NCBI GenBank assembly: GCA_016182605.1
Contig: JACPGE010000008.1
Location: 99,014-163,013 of the forward strand
Origin: Candidatus Hydrogenedentota bacterium
Lineage (GTDB): Bacteria > Hydrogenedentota > Hydrogenedentia > Hydrogenedentales > JAEUWI01
Length of the DNA stretch: 64,000 nucleotides
Direction: 5' to 3'
A program made the position numbers and the translations under genes. Below, piece after piece: positions 17,718-23,113 of the stretch. Under the pieces are notes generated by a model. It was not told the origin of the DNA. It saw only the letters and a program-made list of their open reading frames with translations, and did not search any database. Within the stretch, counting starts at the first letter, position 1; each line of letters opens with the position of its first letter.

Positions 17718-18494
17718 TTACGCGTACGGCCAGTCCTCGATGGCGCGGTTCTCGTGCAGCTCGCCGCAGGCACCCATGAGCAAAGTAATCGCACAAAGAA
17801 TCCACAACTGTGCCGCGAGCACCGGCCAGACGTAGAAAAAGTTCACAGTTGCGGCGTGGGTAAATCCCAGCAGCATGCCCGTACTCCAGTAACCAGCGAT
17901 AAAAAATGCCGGAAAGGGAAGGAACGCGAGGGGTATCGCGCGTGCCGATTTCATCAAGAGCGCTTGCGTTGGGCGGCTTTCGTTGCTATTGGTCTGTGCG
18001 CGGTCCACGAAGTCCTGCAAGGGCTGCCACGCAATGAAGAGGCAGAAGAGCCAAGCGAAGAAGAATATCAGCAAGGGCGTTACTTCAATTGCCCGTGTCA
18101 GTGGATTGATGTTGCACCACAGCACTGCTGTGCCCACGCCGATGCCCATCAGGAGGAAGCTGGCCACGGTGGACAACGCCACATACGCCGGTGCCACGCG
18201 GACGGCAAAACGCGCGCGGGATTCTCCCGGCCGTACTGCCGCGCGGCGCCTGAAGGCCAATTCAAGCCGCTCCCGCGGCGTGATCGACGCCTGAAGGGAC
18301 GCACGGAGTTCCGCAGGGTCGCCCAACCGCGACCAGGCCCGTGCGCAGGCCGCATCGTTTCCGCCTTCCTCCTCCGCCAAGGCGAAGAAGTGGGCCCACA
18401 ACTCGCGGCGCATCGTATTCTTCCGGAGGAGCGATGCGTTGATGGGGTGGACGATGGCCTCGATGGGTTGCTTGTAAGGTTCCACGGCACTCAT
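17718..18494 (-). CDS. Hypothetical membrane protein coupled to the PadR regulator
   Basis: Start overlaps the padR stop (ATGA); soluble N-terminus then several TM segments. Confidence 0.7.
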   Translation of the reverse strand: MSAVEPYKQPIEAIVHPINASLLRKNTMRRELWAHFFALAEEEGGNDAACARAWSRLGDPAELRASLQASITPRERLELAFRRRAAVRPGESRARFAVRVAPAYVALSTVASFLLMGIGVGTAVLWCNINPLTRAIEVTPLLIFFFAWLFCLFIAWQPLQDFVDRAQTNSNESRPTQALLMKSARAIPLAFLPFPAFFIAGYWSTGMLLGFTHAATVNFFYVWPVLAAQLWILCAITLLMGACGELHENRAIEDWPYA

Positions 18495-18835
18495 GTTGCG
18501 CCCTCCAGCATGGGTCCCACGGTGGATACAAACAGTTTCCATTGCGTGCGCCGCGCCGCCAGATCGCGCGTGCCCTTGGCGGTGAGCCTGTAAAGCCGCC
18601 GCTTCGGACCCTTGCGCGGCGCGTCGTCCTTTTCCCAGCGCGTGGCCAGCATGCCTTTTTGCTCCAGCCGGTACAGCACGGGATAAAGCGCGCCTTCCCG
18701 CATGTGAAAGACGCCCCGCGCTTCCGCGTTCAGCCGCTGCATCACCTCGTAGCCGTGCGCTTCGCCCGCTTCCAGCGTGGCCAGCACCAGGCCCTCCAGG
18801 TGACCCCGCAGCATATCTCCAGACAGGGGGTTCAT
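18491..18835 (-). CDS. PadR family transcriptional regulator
   Basis: GHLEGLVLATLEAGEAHGYEVMQRLN...FHMREGALYPVLYRLEQKGML...GPKRRLYRLTAKG. Confidence 0.85.
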   Translation of the reverse strand: MNPLSGDMLRGHLEGLVLATLEAGEAHGYEVMQRLNAEARGVFHMREGALYPVLYRLEQKGMLATRWEKDDAPRKGPKRRLYRLTAKGTRDLAARRTQWKLFVSTVGPMLEGAT

Positions 18836-19027
18836 GCCTCTATTTAAGCACACTGAGTAGTTGCTGTCAAGAGGGGTCGGCGCCCGATCTTCTGATGGAG
18901 ATCCCCGGGATGGTGCCGCCTGGGAGCGCCATCCTCGCCTGGGATCGCCGAGTTGCACTCGGCCCGCCACCACGCGCATCCACACCCCTACGCCCGGCCA
19001 ATATTCCGAAATCGTGGATACCCCCGC

Positions 19028-19966
19028 TCACTTCGCGCCCGGCGCTTTGACGGCGCCCAACGCCACATCCCGATCCGCGGGGCCTTCGTAGGTCTGCACA
19101 AAGTAGGGCTCGGCGTCCGATTCCGCGGAGAGTTCGATCGTGACGGCGTCGCGCGTGAGGATACCCCTCGCGTTCAGCCTCCCCGCAGCGTCTGTCTGCG
19201 CGCACAGCCGATGGACTTCCTTGCCATCTGTATCGCGAACAGTAAGCACATACTCTGCATGGGCGAGGACGCGCCCGCCGCTGCCGGTCAGCGTCGCGGA
19301 AATGGCGCCCGGCTTGCGCAGGGTCAGGGTGATCTCCGGCACTTCCTGGCCGCCTTTCACGGTGAAATGGGGCGACGCCGTCCACGTGTAGGAATCCTTC
19401 GAGGCGCTGACCCACACCTCATGGCCCGGCTTGGCCCACCACGTATGGCGCCCCGATCCTCCCGTCCGCGAGGAGATGCTCAGCGCGCCAAAGTCCCCAT
19501 CGTATTCCGGAGTCCTGCGCGAGAGCCGGAGCTCCGCCCCGGAGACGGCCTTTCCCTCAGCGTTTACCACCCGCACATCGACGCGCACGGGATCAATCAT
19601 CGCCAAGGACTCGATCTCAACCGCATCCCCGGCGGCCTCCACGGAGATTTCCTGCTCCGCCCCATCGCGCGCACGATCCCAATGGTCATACCAGAACGGG
19701 GCATAGCTGGGGGTCAGCACATACCTGCCCGCCTCGGGAAGCGCCAGGGAGAATTGCGCTGCCCCCTCCTTCGACAAGGCCTGGGCCGTCCAAGCACCCG
19801 TGGCGGCATGCCGCGCATGCACCCAGGCCTCCATGGGAATCGGCTGCTGCGATTCCGCCCCCACAATCGCGCCCGTCACGACGATAGCTTCGGCCGCAGA
19901 CAGCGCGGGGAAGAGCGCGGCAACTGCCAGCGCAGCGAGCTGGGATCGAATCAGGGTCGTGTTCAT
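19028..19966 (-). CDS. Secreted protein with carboxypeptidase-regulatory/Ig-like domains
   Basis: MNTTLIRSQLAALAVAALFPALSAAEA signal peptide, followed by beta-rich repeats such as RVVNAEGKAVSGAELRLSRR. Confidence 0.55.
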   Translation of the reverse strand: MNTTLIRSQLAALAVAALFPALSAAEAIVVTGAIVGAESQQPIPMEAWVHARHAATGAWTAQALSKEGAAQFSLALPEAGRYVLTPSYAPFWYDHWDRARDGAEQEISVEAAGDAVEIESLAMIDPVRVDVRVVNAEGKAVSGAELRLSRRTPEYDGDFGALSISSRTGGSGRHTWWAKPGHEVWVSASKDSYTWTASPHFTVKGGQEVPEITLTLRKPGAISATLTGSGGRVLAHAEYVLTVRDTDGKEVHRLCAQTDAAGRLNARGILTRDAVTIELSAESDAEPYFVQTYEGPADRDVALGAVKAPGAK

Positions 19967-20045
19967 GGCCGGCCTTTCGCGCGTGTTCACTGGACAAGCA
20001 GTACTACAGTAGTACCCCTGTCATGATACGCGCCACAGCCGCTGC

Positions 20046-20142
20046 CGTCAATCTCCATCCGCCAACGTATCCGCCCGCGCCCCGCCCTCAGATCTCCAGC
20101 GTGGATATCGCGATCCCGCCGCCGAAGCACACGGTCACGTCC
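20046..20142 (-). repeat. Direct repeat copy A: orphan 3' end of surE (17 codons plus stop plus 3' flank)
   Basis: Minus strand encodes DVTVCFGGGIAISTLEI*, as does 22377-22472; a few substitutions and one indel over ~97 bp. Confidence 0.9.
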
Positions 20143-20537
20143 CACACCGCATTGACGGGGCCCAGCAATTTGATTGAGTGGGTCGAATGAACGAAATAAT
20201 CTCCTGGCGCAACATTCCGGGATCATGATCTCACCTTAAAATGATCGTCCTGAAAGAGCCAAACAAATCGCAGTTCCCAAGTGCAGTGCGGGGAGTAAAC
20301 GGATTTGGAGCCTGTCGCACCACTTCAGGGCTGAATCTCTGGCTGTCCAGGCCCCTGAACGGTAATCCGGGGCTATTATATTGACCACTTGGGGCCACGT
20401 AATAGAATCGACCCACCGGAGCGCGGAATTCATCCGTTTGACGAATATAGTTTTGGATACGCGAGGCATGTTCATGGTCCACGACAAGTGATTCGCCAGA
20501 GTATGAGAGAGGGCGGCCGTTCTTCCCCGCACACTTT

Positions 20538-22151
20538 TCAGTCTACCTGCAGTCCGCACACATCCAGCCACTGTCTATTCCAGGCAAAACGCCACCTTCC
20601 AATAGCCTGTACTTTAGAATTCATAATATCGGGCGACTGAATCCGGCCGGCAACCTGATATCGTAGCGTACATATCAAATCACAACCCAGCCCAAATCCT
20701 GCGAGTCGCCGTCGACGGTAGTCTCGTCTGAACAAATTCAATTGAACGAAACCTATAGGCAAGTAGGCTGACAGATGCCAACGATTCTGTTTCCTCGCAC
20801 ACTTTCTCGCAACGCGTACAATGTAGCTGCGGTACATTCGAATCGTTTCCATGACATCAGCGTCGTTCAGGTCATCGATGACCAAGTCGGCCCTGATTAC
20901 AGAATACCAAGAGTTTCTGTGGATCGACACATTTCTGCAGTTTACTTTGGGAAACCCAAAGTCATCGTGCAAACGTTGCATGGTCACTGGCCAATGAATC
21001 TGAAAACTAGTTAGTAAAGTGTCGATTCGACCAAGGAAATGAGGTAATGAAAGCAAGGGAAAATAGTATACGCAATTATTCTCCAGAACCCCCAAGTACC
21101 GGGATATATCATCAATATGCGCTTCCCGCAACTCTCTTAACCGTTGCCCGTCAAAACCGGCCCATCCACGCAGAGCCTTTCGACTATAGAGAGAAAAAAA
21201 ATAGCGATCAAATCCTGGAGCAAAGTACTCCGCAAGTATTCCTGATTGTATCGTCGACCATTGTATCTTCGCGTAGTGCCGTGAATTGGGACGAGCGAAA
21301 ACGACCAACTGGCGTGTGTTCCCTATCTCCTGTTCCAGACACCCTTCAATTGTCCACCACGGGGACTTGGTTTCTTCTTGCAGTTCTTCCACCAGCAATT
21401 GATGTGGACGGATATAGCCGCGATCTTGCGAGACCAACAGGAATGCTTTCATAGCCACAGCAAGGCCGTTGCATGCATCCAGTAGGTCGTCGAATAAGCG
21501 CACTACAGCCCGAACACCGAGAGTCTCCTGTCGTTGACCCCTATCGCGATAACATATTTCATCCTTGCGAAACGTGAATCCGCCGTGCGCTATTCCATTT
21601 CGCACTATGTGTCGGTAGGACCGAGCAAAGCACCTGGTCGCGTCACGGTTGAGTTCTTGTACAACGGACCAAGTGTCAAGCCCTTCGGTCCCCTTGCCCC
21701 GATCACATCGAGAAAACCAGGCAACAGGTCGAGTAAGTGGTGTTAACACCCCTTCGATAAGACGCAGATAGGCAGGATGAATCTTGTCGTCTATGAATCG
21801 AATAGTATCGAACTCGTCACCGATGCCGAATAGTTTATCGTGCCAATCCTGAGAATTAATCTCCCGAAGGAACAAGAAAGCATTGTTGATTTCATCGCTG
21901 AATTGTTCAAGACACTCTCGTAGCCTTACTGTGTCAGTCTCATCTCGATGTTGAAGCCACAATGCAAACGCATCATATACTTCGAGATCAAAAAACTTTT
22001 CTGGGCGTTTGTCCAAATAGTGGCGGAGAGAAAGGCAATGCGATCCAAGTGCGTCGAGGATTAACGGAAATGCCGTAGCAATTCGGACTTTATCACGAGA
22101 ATCGAGTTCCCGTGTTAACGCATTGCACAATCGATTATGAAGTGGGTGCAT
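20538..22151 (-). CDS. Uncharacterised 537-aa protein with a HEPN-like RNGIAH (R-x4-H) motif
   Basis: ORF with RSYRHIVRNGIAHGGFTF; RN-x3-H is the HEPN ribonuclease signature form. No other family recognised. Confidence 0.6.
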   Translation of the reverse strand: MHPLHNRLCNALTRELDSRDKVRIATAFPLILDALGSHCLSLRHYLDKRPEKFFDLEVYDAFALWLQHRDETDTVRLRECLEQFSDEINNAFLFLREINSQDWHDKLFGIGDEFDTIRFIDDKIHPAYLRLIEGVLTPLTRPVAWFSRCDRGKGTEGLDTWSVVQELNRDATRCFARSYRHIVRNGIAHGGFTFRKDEICYRDRGQRQETLGVRAVVRLFDDLLDACNGLAVAMKAFLLVSQDRGYIRPHQLLVEELQEETKSPWWTIEGCLEQEIGNTRQLVVFARPNSRHYAKIQWSTIQSGILAEYFAPGFDRYFFSLYSRKALRGWAGFDGQRLRELREAHIDDISRYLGVLENNCVYYFPLLSLPHFLGRIDTLLTSFQIHWPVTMQRLHDDFGFPKVNCRNVSIHRNSWYSVIRADLVIDDLNDADVMETIRMYRSYIVRVARKCARKQNRWHLSAYLPIGFVQLNLFRRDYRRRRLAGFGLGCDLICTLRYQVAGRIQSPDIMNSKVQAIGRWRFAWNRQWLDVCGLQVD

Positions 22152-22156
22152 TAAAT

Positions 22157-22168
22157 ATACTTAAGTAT
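22157..22168. promoter_or_regulatory. 12-bp perfect palindrome ATACTTAAGTAT just upstream of the HEPN-like ORF start
   Basis: Exact palindrome 5 bp upstream of the start codon (22149-22151 on the minus strand). Confidence 0.45.
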
Positions 22169-22376
22169 GTTAAAGGGAAAGAGTAATCGAGCCGCACTTG
22201 TTAGAACGCGGCCTAAACGAACGTCAAGAGTAAGGCGACGCGCCAGCGCTCTTTTACAGGATTCAAGACGGGTATGCACTCCGACAAGTAATTTCTTAGG
22301 AGTTTCGGGGGCATTGGTGGAGAGCGAAAAAATACTACTGTAACGAGAGTGTTATTTTACGCGCCGGGGATCGTTT

Positions 22377-22472
22377 CGTCAATCCCATACGCCAACGAAT
22401 CCGCCCGCGCCCCGCGCTCAGATCTCCAGCGTGGAGATCGCGATCCCGCCGCCGAAGCACACCGTCACGTCC
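22377..22472 (-). repeat. Direct repeat copy B: 3' end of intact surE plus 3' flank
   Basis: Pairs with 20046-20142; includes the surE stop codon at 22418-22420. Confidence 0.9.
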
Positions 22473-23113
22473 GTGCCGGGGACCTGGTCGCGGCCCTGGT
22501 AGCGGCCGCGCTGGTAGCGGTAGTGTTCGCCCTCCATCTTGTACTCGATCGGCAGGCAGGTGCGGCAGGGCTCGGTCCAGTGGACCTCGGGAATCACCGC
22601 GTCGTCGCGGTGGGGGAAATTGGCGTTCCAGAACCGGCCCCGTTGCCACGCCTGGCCTTCGAGGAGCCCCAACACACGGTGCGCGTGGTCCACGGCGCGT
22701 TCCCAGTTCAGCGGGAAGCCCTCGTGAAAATACTGGGAGAAGGCGACGGCGCGCACCCCGTGAAAGGCGGCCTCCCGCGCCGCGCCGACCGTCCCCGACA
22801 GGTAGATGTCGTGGCCGAGGTTGCCGCCCTCGTTGATGCCCGACACGACCCATGCCGCGTCCTGTGCGAAATAGGCGAGGCCCAGGCGCACGCAATCCGC
22901 GGGCGATCCATGCACGGCGTAGCGGTTTTCGCCGCGCTGCTCCACCTTGATGGGTGTATTCATGGTGGTGAGGTGGCTGCAGCCCGACTGCACCGTGGCG
23001 GGCGCGACAATCACGGGCGTCCAATCGCCCCAGTGCCGTACCGCCGTTTCCAGCGCCTCGATTCCCGGCGCGTCAACACCGTCGTCGTTTGTAATGAGGA
23101 TAATCCGGGACAA
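22418..23113 (-). CDS. surE: 5'/3'-nucleotidase SurE
   Basis: MSRIILITNDDGVDAPGIEALE...VSGINEGGNLGHDIYLSGTVGAAREAAFHG. Confidence 0.95.
   Translation of the reverse strand: MSRIILITNDDGVDAPGIEALETAVRHWGDWTPVIVAPATVQSGCSHLTTMNTPIKVEQRGENRYAVHGSPADCVRLGLAYFAQDAAWVVSGINEGGNLGHDIYLSGTVGAAREAAFHGVRAVAFSQYFHEGFPLNWERAVDHAHRVLGLLEGQAWQRGRFWNANFPHRDDAVIPEVHWTEPCRTCLPIEYKMEGEHYRYQRGRYQGRDQVPGTDVTVCFGGGIAISTLEI

What the first reader, a model, noticed from the sequence alone, without database searches (positions are those of the whole stretch)
20046..22472. surE 3'-end duplication brackets a 2.2-kb foreign-looking insert
A ~97-bp segment (last 17 surE codons, stop, ~42 bp downstream) occurs at 22377-22472 (intact surE) and in the same orientation at 20046-20142, where it is orphaned. 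The two coding differences are both synonymous (ACC/ACG, ATA/ATC), while the rest fall after the stop. This suggests both copies descended from functional surE genes rather than one being a decaying duplicate. The geometry matches integration into a gene 3' end with restoration of the reading frame (as known for elements entering icd or tRNA genes), but no integrase lies within the insert. Integration as the mechanism is inference; acquisition by homologous recombination from a relative is an alternative.
Basis: partly seen in the sequence, partly recalled or inferred. Interest (0 to 1): 0.78.

Follow-up and report, generated by a model that had tools for sequence, protein, structure and literature searches.

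The report
Gene insert behind duplicated surE end
A foreign single-gene insert sits directly behind a housekeeping gene and is bracketed by two copies of that gene's tail; the same genome carries at least four similar unrelated inserts, one a restriction-modification system, so this looks like a known recombination-driven way of gaining defence-type genes rather than a new integrase element.

Summary
The last 17 surE codons, the stop and ~41 nt more occur at 22377-22472 (intact surE) and orphaned at 20046-20142 (94%). These are the only two copies in the 6.76-Mb genome. The 2234 bp between them are foreign (GC 0.48 against 0.63; GC3 0.47 against 0.87 in surE). They hold one real gene, a rare 537-aa protein with two conserved Rx4H motifs and only two relatives found.

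The integrase reading is not supported. No integrase lies in the insert, the genome has five tyrosine recombinases (none on this contig) and no resolvase-type one. In 1.97 Mb of this genome I found four more low-GC inserts, each bracketed by a different, unique copy of a neighbouring gene's 3' end. They carry a type II restriction-modification system, a DUF3800 gene, an SDH/ClpP-like protease and a small membrane ORF. Unique direct repeats bracket 5 of 152 low-GC islands against 1 of 760 random intervals (p = 6e-4).

This matches 'insertion with long target duplication'. The copies look like diverged orthologues (synonymous changes, conserved promoter with a diverged spacer). A single crossover with a fragment from a relative carrying [surE end + cargo] therefore fits best. 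No close relative was available to show the empty site.

The parts
22418..23113 (-). surE (231 aa), intact; on the best model its last 17 codons are donor-derived
   Evidence: PF01975 E 4.8e-49; ORF
22377..22472 (-). copy B of the surE 3'-end repeat: last 17 codons, stop, 41 nt
   Evidence: 93.8% to copy A over 97 columns
22354..22382 (-). promoter-like TTGACG-17-TAAAAT in copy B and just beyond it, facing the cargo gene
   Evidence: 10 of 12 consensus matches, same position relative to surE as in copy A; consensus only
20143..22376 (.). foreign insert, 2234 bp, GC 0.48 against 0.64 in the flanks
   Evidence: no DNA relative in 67 other genomes of the phylum apart from one 58-nt stretch of the cargo gene in G026
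20538..22151 (-). cargo gene, 537 aa, unknown family with conserved RNGIAH (184) and R[NE]xxIH (406) motifs; GC3 0.47
   Evidence: no hit in Pfam, PADLOC, PHROGs, NCBIfam or PDB
20046..20142 (-). copy A, orphan surE 3' end (17 codons, stop, downstream); on the best model the recipient's native surE end
   Evidence: sharp 5' edge at 20142/20143
20023..20051 (-). promoter-like TTGACG-17-TATCAT overlapping the end of copy A, facing the 19028-19966 operon
20001..20015 (.). perfect palindrome GTACTACAGTAGTAC, probable operator; copy B keeps only TTACAGTAGTA at 22333-22343
   Evidence: regulator assignment is inference
19028..19966 (-). native downstream gene (carboxypeptidase-regulatory-like domain), followed by a PadR regulator (18491-18985) and a membrane protein
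   Evidence: PF13620 E 9e-8, PF03551 E 6e-21

Best explanation
A DNA fragment from a related lineage, carrying the end of surE, its downstream promoter region and a cargo gene, recombined with the resident surE through homology at one end only. Most simply the fragment was circularised and entered by one crossover within the surE 3' end, a Campbell-type event. This leaves an intact surE whose tail is the donor's, then the cargo, then the recipient's original surE tail as an orphan in front of its old downstream operon. The product has the form known as 'insertion with long target duplication', and the same genome shows it at least four more times at other genes. Shown: both repeats, their uniqueness, the foreign insert, the lack of an integrase, and the recurrence with other repeats and cargo. 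Inferred: the donor origin of copy B, the single crossover, and that the cargo is a defence-type RNase.
For: Unique repeat pair and foreign GC/GC3. Four more gene-3'-end brackets in 29% of the genome with unrelated repeats of 75-229 nt: XcyI-type REase plus MTase behind a VWA gene, DUF3800 behind a PfkB kinase, SDH-type protease behind a 232-aa gene, small membrane ORF behind a ceramidase-like gene. Enrichment at low-GC islands: 5/152 against 1/760 random, p 6e-4, with no unique inverted pairs. Divergence looks pre-existing and selected: surE 2/2 differences synonymous; restriction-modification locus third-position bias [5,3,17] over 76 codons; surE promoter hexamers largely kept while the spacer is 8/17 identical; the PfkB tails differ in frame. 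The mechanism has an experimental precedent: 56 of 60 E. coli clones expected to come from one-sided recombination instead carried duplications (109-950 bp in 14 sequenced), attributed to a single crossover of a shortened circular molecule (PMC3240628). ComEC is present.
Against: No donor genome and no empty site seen. Homology of only about 100 bp is short for efficient RecA recombination. With purifying selection on the intact copy alone, about half of the differences would fall at third positions, and 17/25 is only p = 0.054 against that. The C2 and C35 brackets show no third-position bias. The similarity beyond the block rests on a 1-in-200 shuffle test. Ku is absent, so end-joining circularisation would need another route.
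Confidence: 0.5

Rival explanations
1. Insertion with long target duplication in the strict sense: the cargo inserted into one surE end and the insertion itself duplicated ~100-170 bp of target, for example by repair of a staggered or nuclease-made break; the copies then diverged in place.
For: Repeat length, lack of mobility genes and a restriction-modification system inserted the same way in the same genome match the published description of long, variable, ~100-bp duplications (PMC3874152, PMC3031569, PMC1643837). The SDH bracket is about 96-97% identical, with no clean coding substitution.
Against: In-place decay should not leave the orphan codons at 53/55 identical while the neighbouring promoter spacer is 8/17, nor give the third-position bias at the restriction-modification locus.
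Confidence: 0.2
2. Site-specific integration at the surE 3' end by a recombinase supplied in trans, with the element's attachment site restoring the reading frame, as for elements at icd or tRNA genes.
For: Exact 3'-end geometry with surE restored; five tyrosine recombinases exist in the genome; integrase-less islands with imperfect direct repeats are known (microcin H47, PMC3191183).
Against: No recombinase in or near the insert, no resolvase-type gene in the genome, unrelated repeats at the other brackets, and relatives of the cargo behind recG and ruvB without gene-end repeats.
Confidence: 0.15
3. Relic of a tandem surE duplication (or divergent paralogue) in which the 5' part of the second copy was replaced by the cargo region.
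For: Both copies have surE ends followed by related promoter regions.
Against: No trace of surE upstream of copy A (extension score 0); the repeated pattern at unrelated genes would need the same accident each time.
Confidence: 0.1
4. Assembly artefact: a low-GC contig from another organism joined at a short shared sequence.
For: The genome is probably metagenome-assembled (130 contigs); reads were not available.
Against: The repeats are imperfect, so they share only short exact runs; the two junctions, in-frame surE and several independent brackets would all have to be errors.
Confidence: 0.05

Closest known systems
Insertion with long target duplication (Nobusato et al. 2000; Furuta et al. 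2010)
   Same: Non-transposon cargo bracketed by long, variable direct repeats (order of 100 bp) of target sequence; a type II restriction-modification system is inserted this way in the same genome.
   Different: Here the cargo is mostly not restriction-modification, the copies differ by up to ~15%, all five confirmed sites keep an intact gene by its 3' end, and no empty-site genome could be compared. The two defining papers are not held; described from PMC3874152, PMC3031569 and PMC1643837.
Single-crossover products seen in homology-facilitated illegitimate recombination experiments in E. coli (PMC3240628)
   Same: Foreign DNA joined to a gene, with a 109-950-bp duplication of the homologous gene segment.
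   Different: A laboratory plasmid under selection with cloned homology; here ~100 bp of diverged homology in a natural genome.
Microcin H47 genomic island (PMC3191183)
   Same: Integrase-less island flanked by imperfect direct repeats.
   Different: 13 kb with excision shown by experiment; here 2.2 kb with no excision evidence.
Integrase-borne islands in gene 3' ends (icd, tRNA genes; own knowledge)
   Same: Gene 3' end duplicated and reading frame restored.
   Different: No integrase, and different target sequences at each site.

Membership tests
Insertion with long target duplication | Long, variable direct repeats of target sequence bracket the insert | tested here: met
   97 columns at 93.8%, unique in genome; other sites 75-229 nt
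Insertion with long target duplication | No transposase or integrase in the insert | tested here: met
   Single ORF without family hits; integrases lie on other contigs
Insertion with long target duplication | Restriction-modification cargo (typical, not obligatory) | tested here: not met
   surE cargo has no restriction-modification match; met at the sister site C34
[quoted passage not shown]
   No same-genus genome; family surE about 50% identical and not syntenic
Insertion with long target duplication | Both copies derive from the recipient's single target | tested here: inconclusive
   Divergence pattern suggests a donor-borne copy; p about 0.05 against in-place decay
Integrase-type island in a gene 3' end | Site-specific recombinase encoded by the element | tested here: not met
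Integrase-type island in a gene 3' end | Target gene 3' end restored | tested here: met
   surE intact, orphan end downstream
HEPN RNase (cargo protein) | Conserved Rx4-6H catalytic motif | tested here: met
   RNGIAH and R[NE]xxIH kept in all three relatives
HEPN RNase (cargo protein) | HEPN helical-bundle fold or profile match | tested here: inconclusive
   Models at pLDDT 38 and 58; no meaningful fold match; no Pfam match

The most novel reading that the evidence does not exclude
A dedicated, recurrent process in this lineage moves single defence-type genes by using the 3' ends of arbitrary genes as landing sites and reconstructing the target gene each time, without any known recombinase.
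Probability: 0.1. Interest if true: 0.8.

Novelty: new member of a known kind. Interest (0 to 1): 0.42.

Why it matters
It adds four clear cases without restriction-modification cargo, and one with it, to a mobility pattern described mainly for restriction-modification systems. It also suggests that the duplicated 'target' may be a relative's diverged gene end brought in with the cargo, so that single-ended homologous recombination, not a special insertion enzyme, explains the pattern. That can be tested with close relatives or long reads. It also gives a simple scan (unique direct repeats around low-GC islands, here five clean cases in 29% of one genome) for finding orphan defence candidates such as this 537-aa protein.

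Tried and rejected
Cargo relatives in viral contigs, plasmids and phages, 386 genomes of wide spread and PDB (20, 111): none beyond two (G026, L049). AlphaFold on 2 and 3 sequences: too poor to use; Foldseek hits are noise. Empty site at surE in the family: synteny lost. Empty recG site in G021/G015 for the G026 relative: homology stops at the recG end, uninformative. Brackets at C24:16658 and C10:16770 rejected as dispersed repeats (10 and 24 copies in the sample), C5:18293 as paralogues. Apparent upstream extension at C34 rejected as a chance alignment. Rfam and tRNA scans: nothing. G001:C2, 400 kb: two-copy repeats exist but not around clearly low-GC inserts. C35 and C29 brackets left out of the core count as ambiguous.

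Full report
Observation. The window is G000:C24:99014-163013 of a 6.76-Mb, 130-contig genome. The nearest named relative carrying the same cargo is a Candidatus Hydrogenedentota MAG. surE (PF01975) is intact at 22418-23113 minus. The orphan copy starts sharply at 20142: nothing of surE lies beyond it. Both coding differences are synonymous.

Insert. The 2234 bp between the copies have GC 0.48 against 0.64 in the flanks. The one convincing gene, 20538-22151 minus, has GC3 0.47 against 0.87 in surE. It has no match in Pfam, PADLOC, PHROGs, NCBIfam, PDB, plasmids, phages or viral contigs. Only two relatives were found: 45% identity in G026 behind recG and 40% in a MAG contig behind ruvB (recG and ruvB named by reading the translations, not by a family search). 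All three genes lie downstream of, and on the same strand as, a housekeeping gene, but only the surE case shows a gene-end repeat. Two Rx4H motifs are kept in all three. That is a lead towards HEPN RNases, not a test passed: the structure models are too poor.

What lies past the stop. Weaker similarity continues for ~74 nt beyond the block (1 of 200 dinucleotide shuffles as good). Each copy carries or runs into TTGACG-17-TA(AA/TC)AT on the minus strand. Identity is 53/55 in the codons, 32/36 from stop to -35, 6/6 in the -35, 8/17 in the spacer, 4/6 in the -10 and 12/21 beyond. Copy A's promoter has a perfect palindrome behind it (20001-20015) and faces a three-gene operon that includes a PadR regulator. 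Copy B's promoter faces the cargo. This is the divergence expected between two orthologous surE-promoter regions, not a uniform young duplicate.

Is it unique? No. I joined 1.97 Mb of the genome (29%) from fetched pieces and looked for repeat pairs. Apart from surE, four clean cases have a gene 3' end repeated as an orphan around a low-GC insert: C34:100383-103158, ~229 nt, cargo XcyI-type restriction enzyme (PF09571, E 2.7e-110) plus methyltransferase; C18:45214-46658, ~75 nt, DUF3800; C24:34867-36134, ~79 nt, SDH-type protease; C2:130897-131687, ~100 nt, a small membrane ORF. Their repeats are unrelated. Cargo runs with the host gene in surE, C34, C18 and the C24 protease case, against it in C2. 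Of 152 low-GC islands, 6 have unique direct repeats at their edges (one of them a paralogue pair; a seventh hit was a short local repeat), against 1 of 760 random intervals and no unique inverted pairs; Fisher p = 6e-4 with 5.

Mechanism. Different repeats at each site, no integrase in any insert annotated here, five tyrosine recombinases elsewhere and no resolvase family speak against one site-specific enzyme. The shape is that of insertion with long target duplication, described for restriction-modification systems with duplications of the order of 100 bp (PMC3874152; PMC3031569; PMC1643837). The divergence between copies adds a clue. At C34, 17 of 25 differences are at third codon positions over 76 codons, with 18 synonymous against 5 nonsynonymous changed codons: p 4e-4 against no selection on either copy, 0.054 if only the intact copy was under selection. 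At C18 the two PfkB tails differ in frame with a length change. So at several sites the intact gene seems to carry a relative's end. A single crossover of a shortened, recircularised fragment gives this product, and was inferred for most of 60 clones in an E. coli experiment, with 109-950-bp duplications in the 14 sequenced (PMC3240628). ComEC is present; Ku is not.

Limits. No same-genus genome was available, so the empty site and the donor are unseen. Reads were not available. The C2 and C35 brackets show no third-position bias. Repeat uniqueness was tested genome-wide only for surE; for the others only within the sample. Extrapolation to the rest of the genome is not tested.

Verdict. Real, foreign and bracketed as described, but a member of a known pattern rather than a new integrase element. 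Its value lies in the recurrence in one genome and in the hint that the duplicated end was brought in with the cargo.

Noticed in passing
G000:C34:100383-103158 (L180:383-3158): XcyI-type restriction enzyme plus methyltransferase inserted behind an 870-aa VWA gene with a ~229-nt 3'-end duplication; the host gene now ends a few nt past the repeat, at a stop supplied by the insert.
   Followed up: yes
G000:C18:45214-46658; C24:34867-36134; C2:130897-131687: Three more gene-3'-end brackets around DUF3800, SDH-type protease and a small membrane ORF.
   Followed up: partly
G000:C35:9215-10200 and C29:63778-66655: Further two-copy repeats, the first at a gene 3' end with a hairpin, the second at a gene 5' end around an AbiEii-like nucleotidyltransferase; ambiguous.
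   Followed up: partly
G000:C24:16658-17995: A ~206-nt dispersed element with inverted ends (about 10 copies in the sample), two copies of which flank a low-GC membrane ORF; MITE-like.
   Followed up: no
G000:C10:16770-16983 and others: A ~214-nt dispersed repeat with about 24 copies in 1.97 Mb.
   Followed up: no
L047:5610-9365: Large gene with WD40-like repeats, a GTPase-like stretch and a metallophosphoesterase-like end directly behind the cargo relative in G026 (by eye); possible defence neighbour.
   Followed up: no
L049:5668-5890: Short direct and inverted repeats (CTGATGTACTGTCAAAC...) between ruvB and the cargo relative.
   Followed up: no
window 20001-20015: Perfect palindrome GTACTACAGTAGTAC behind the promoter of the PadR-containing operon; likely operator.
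   Followed up: partly
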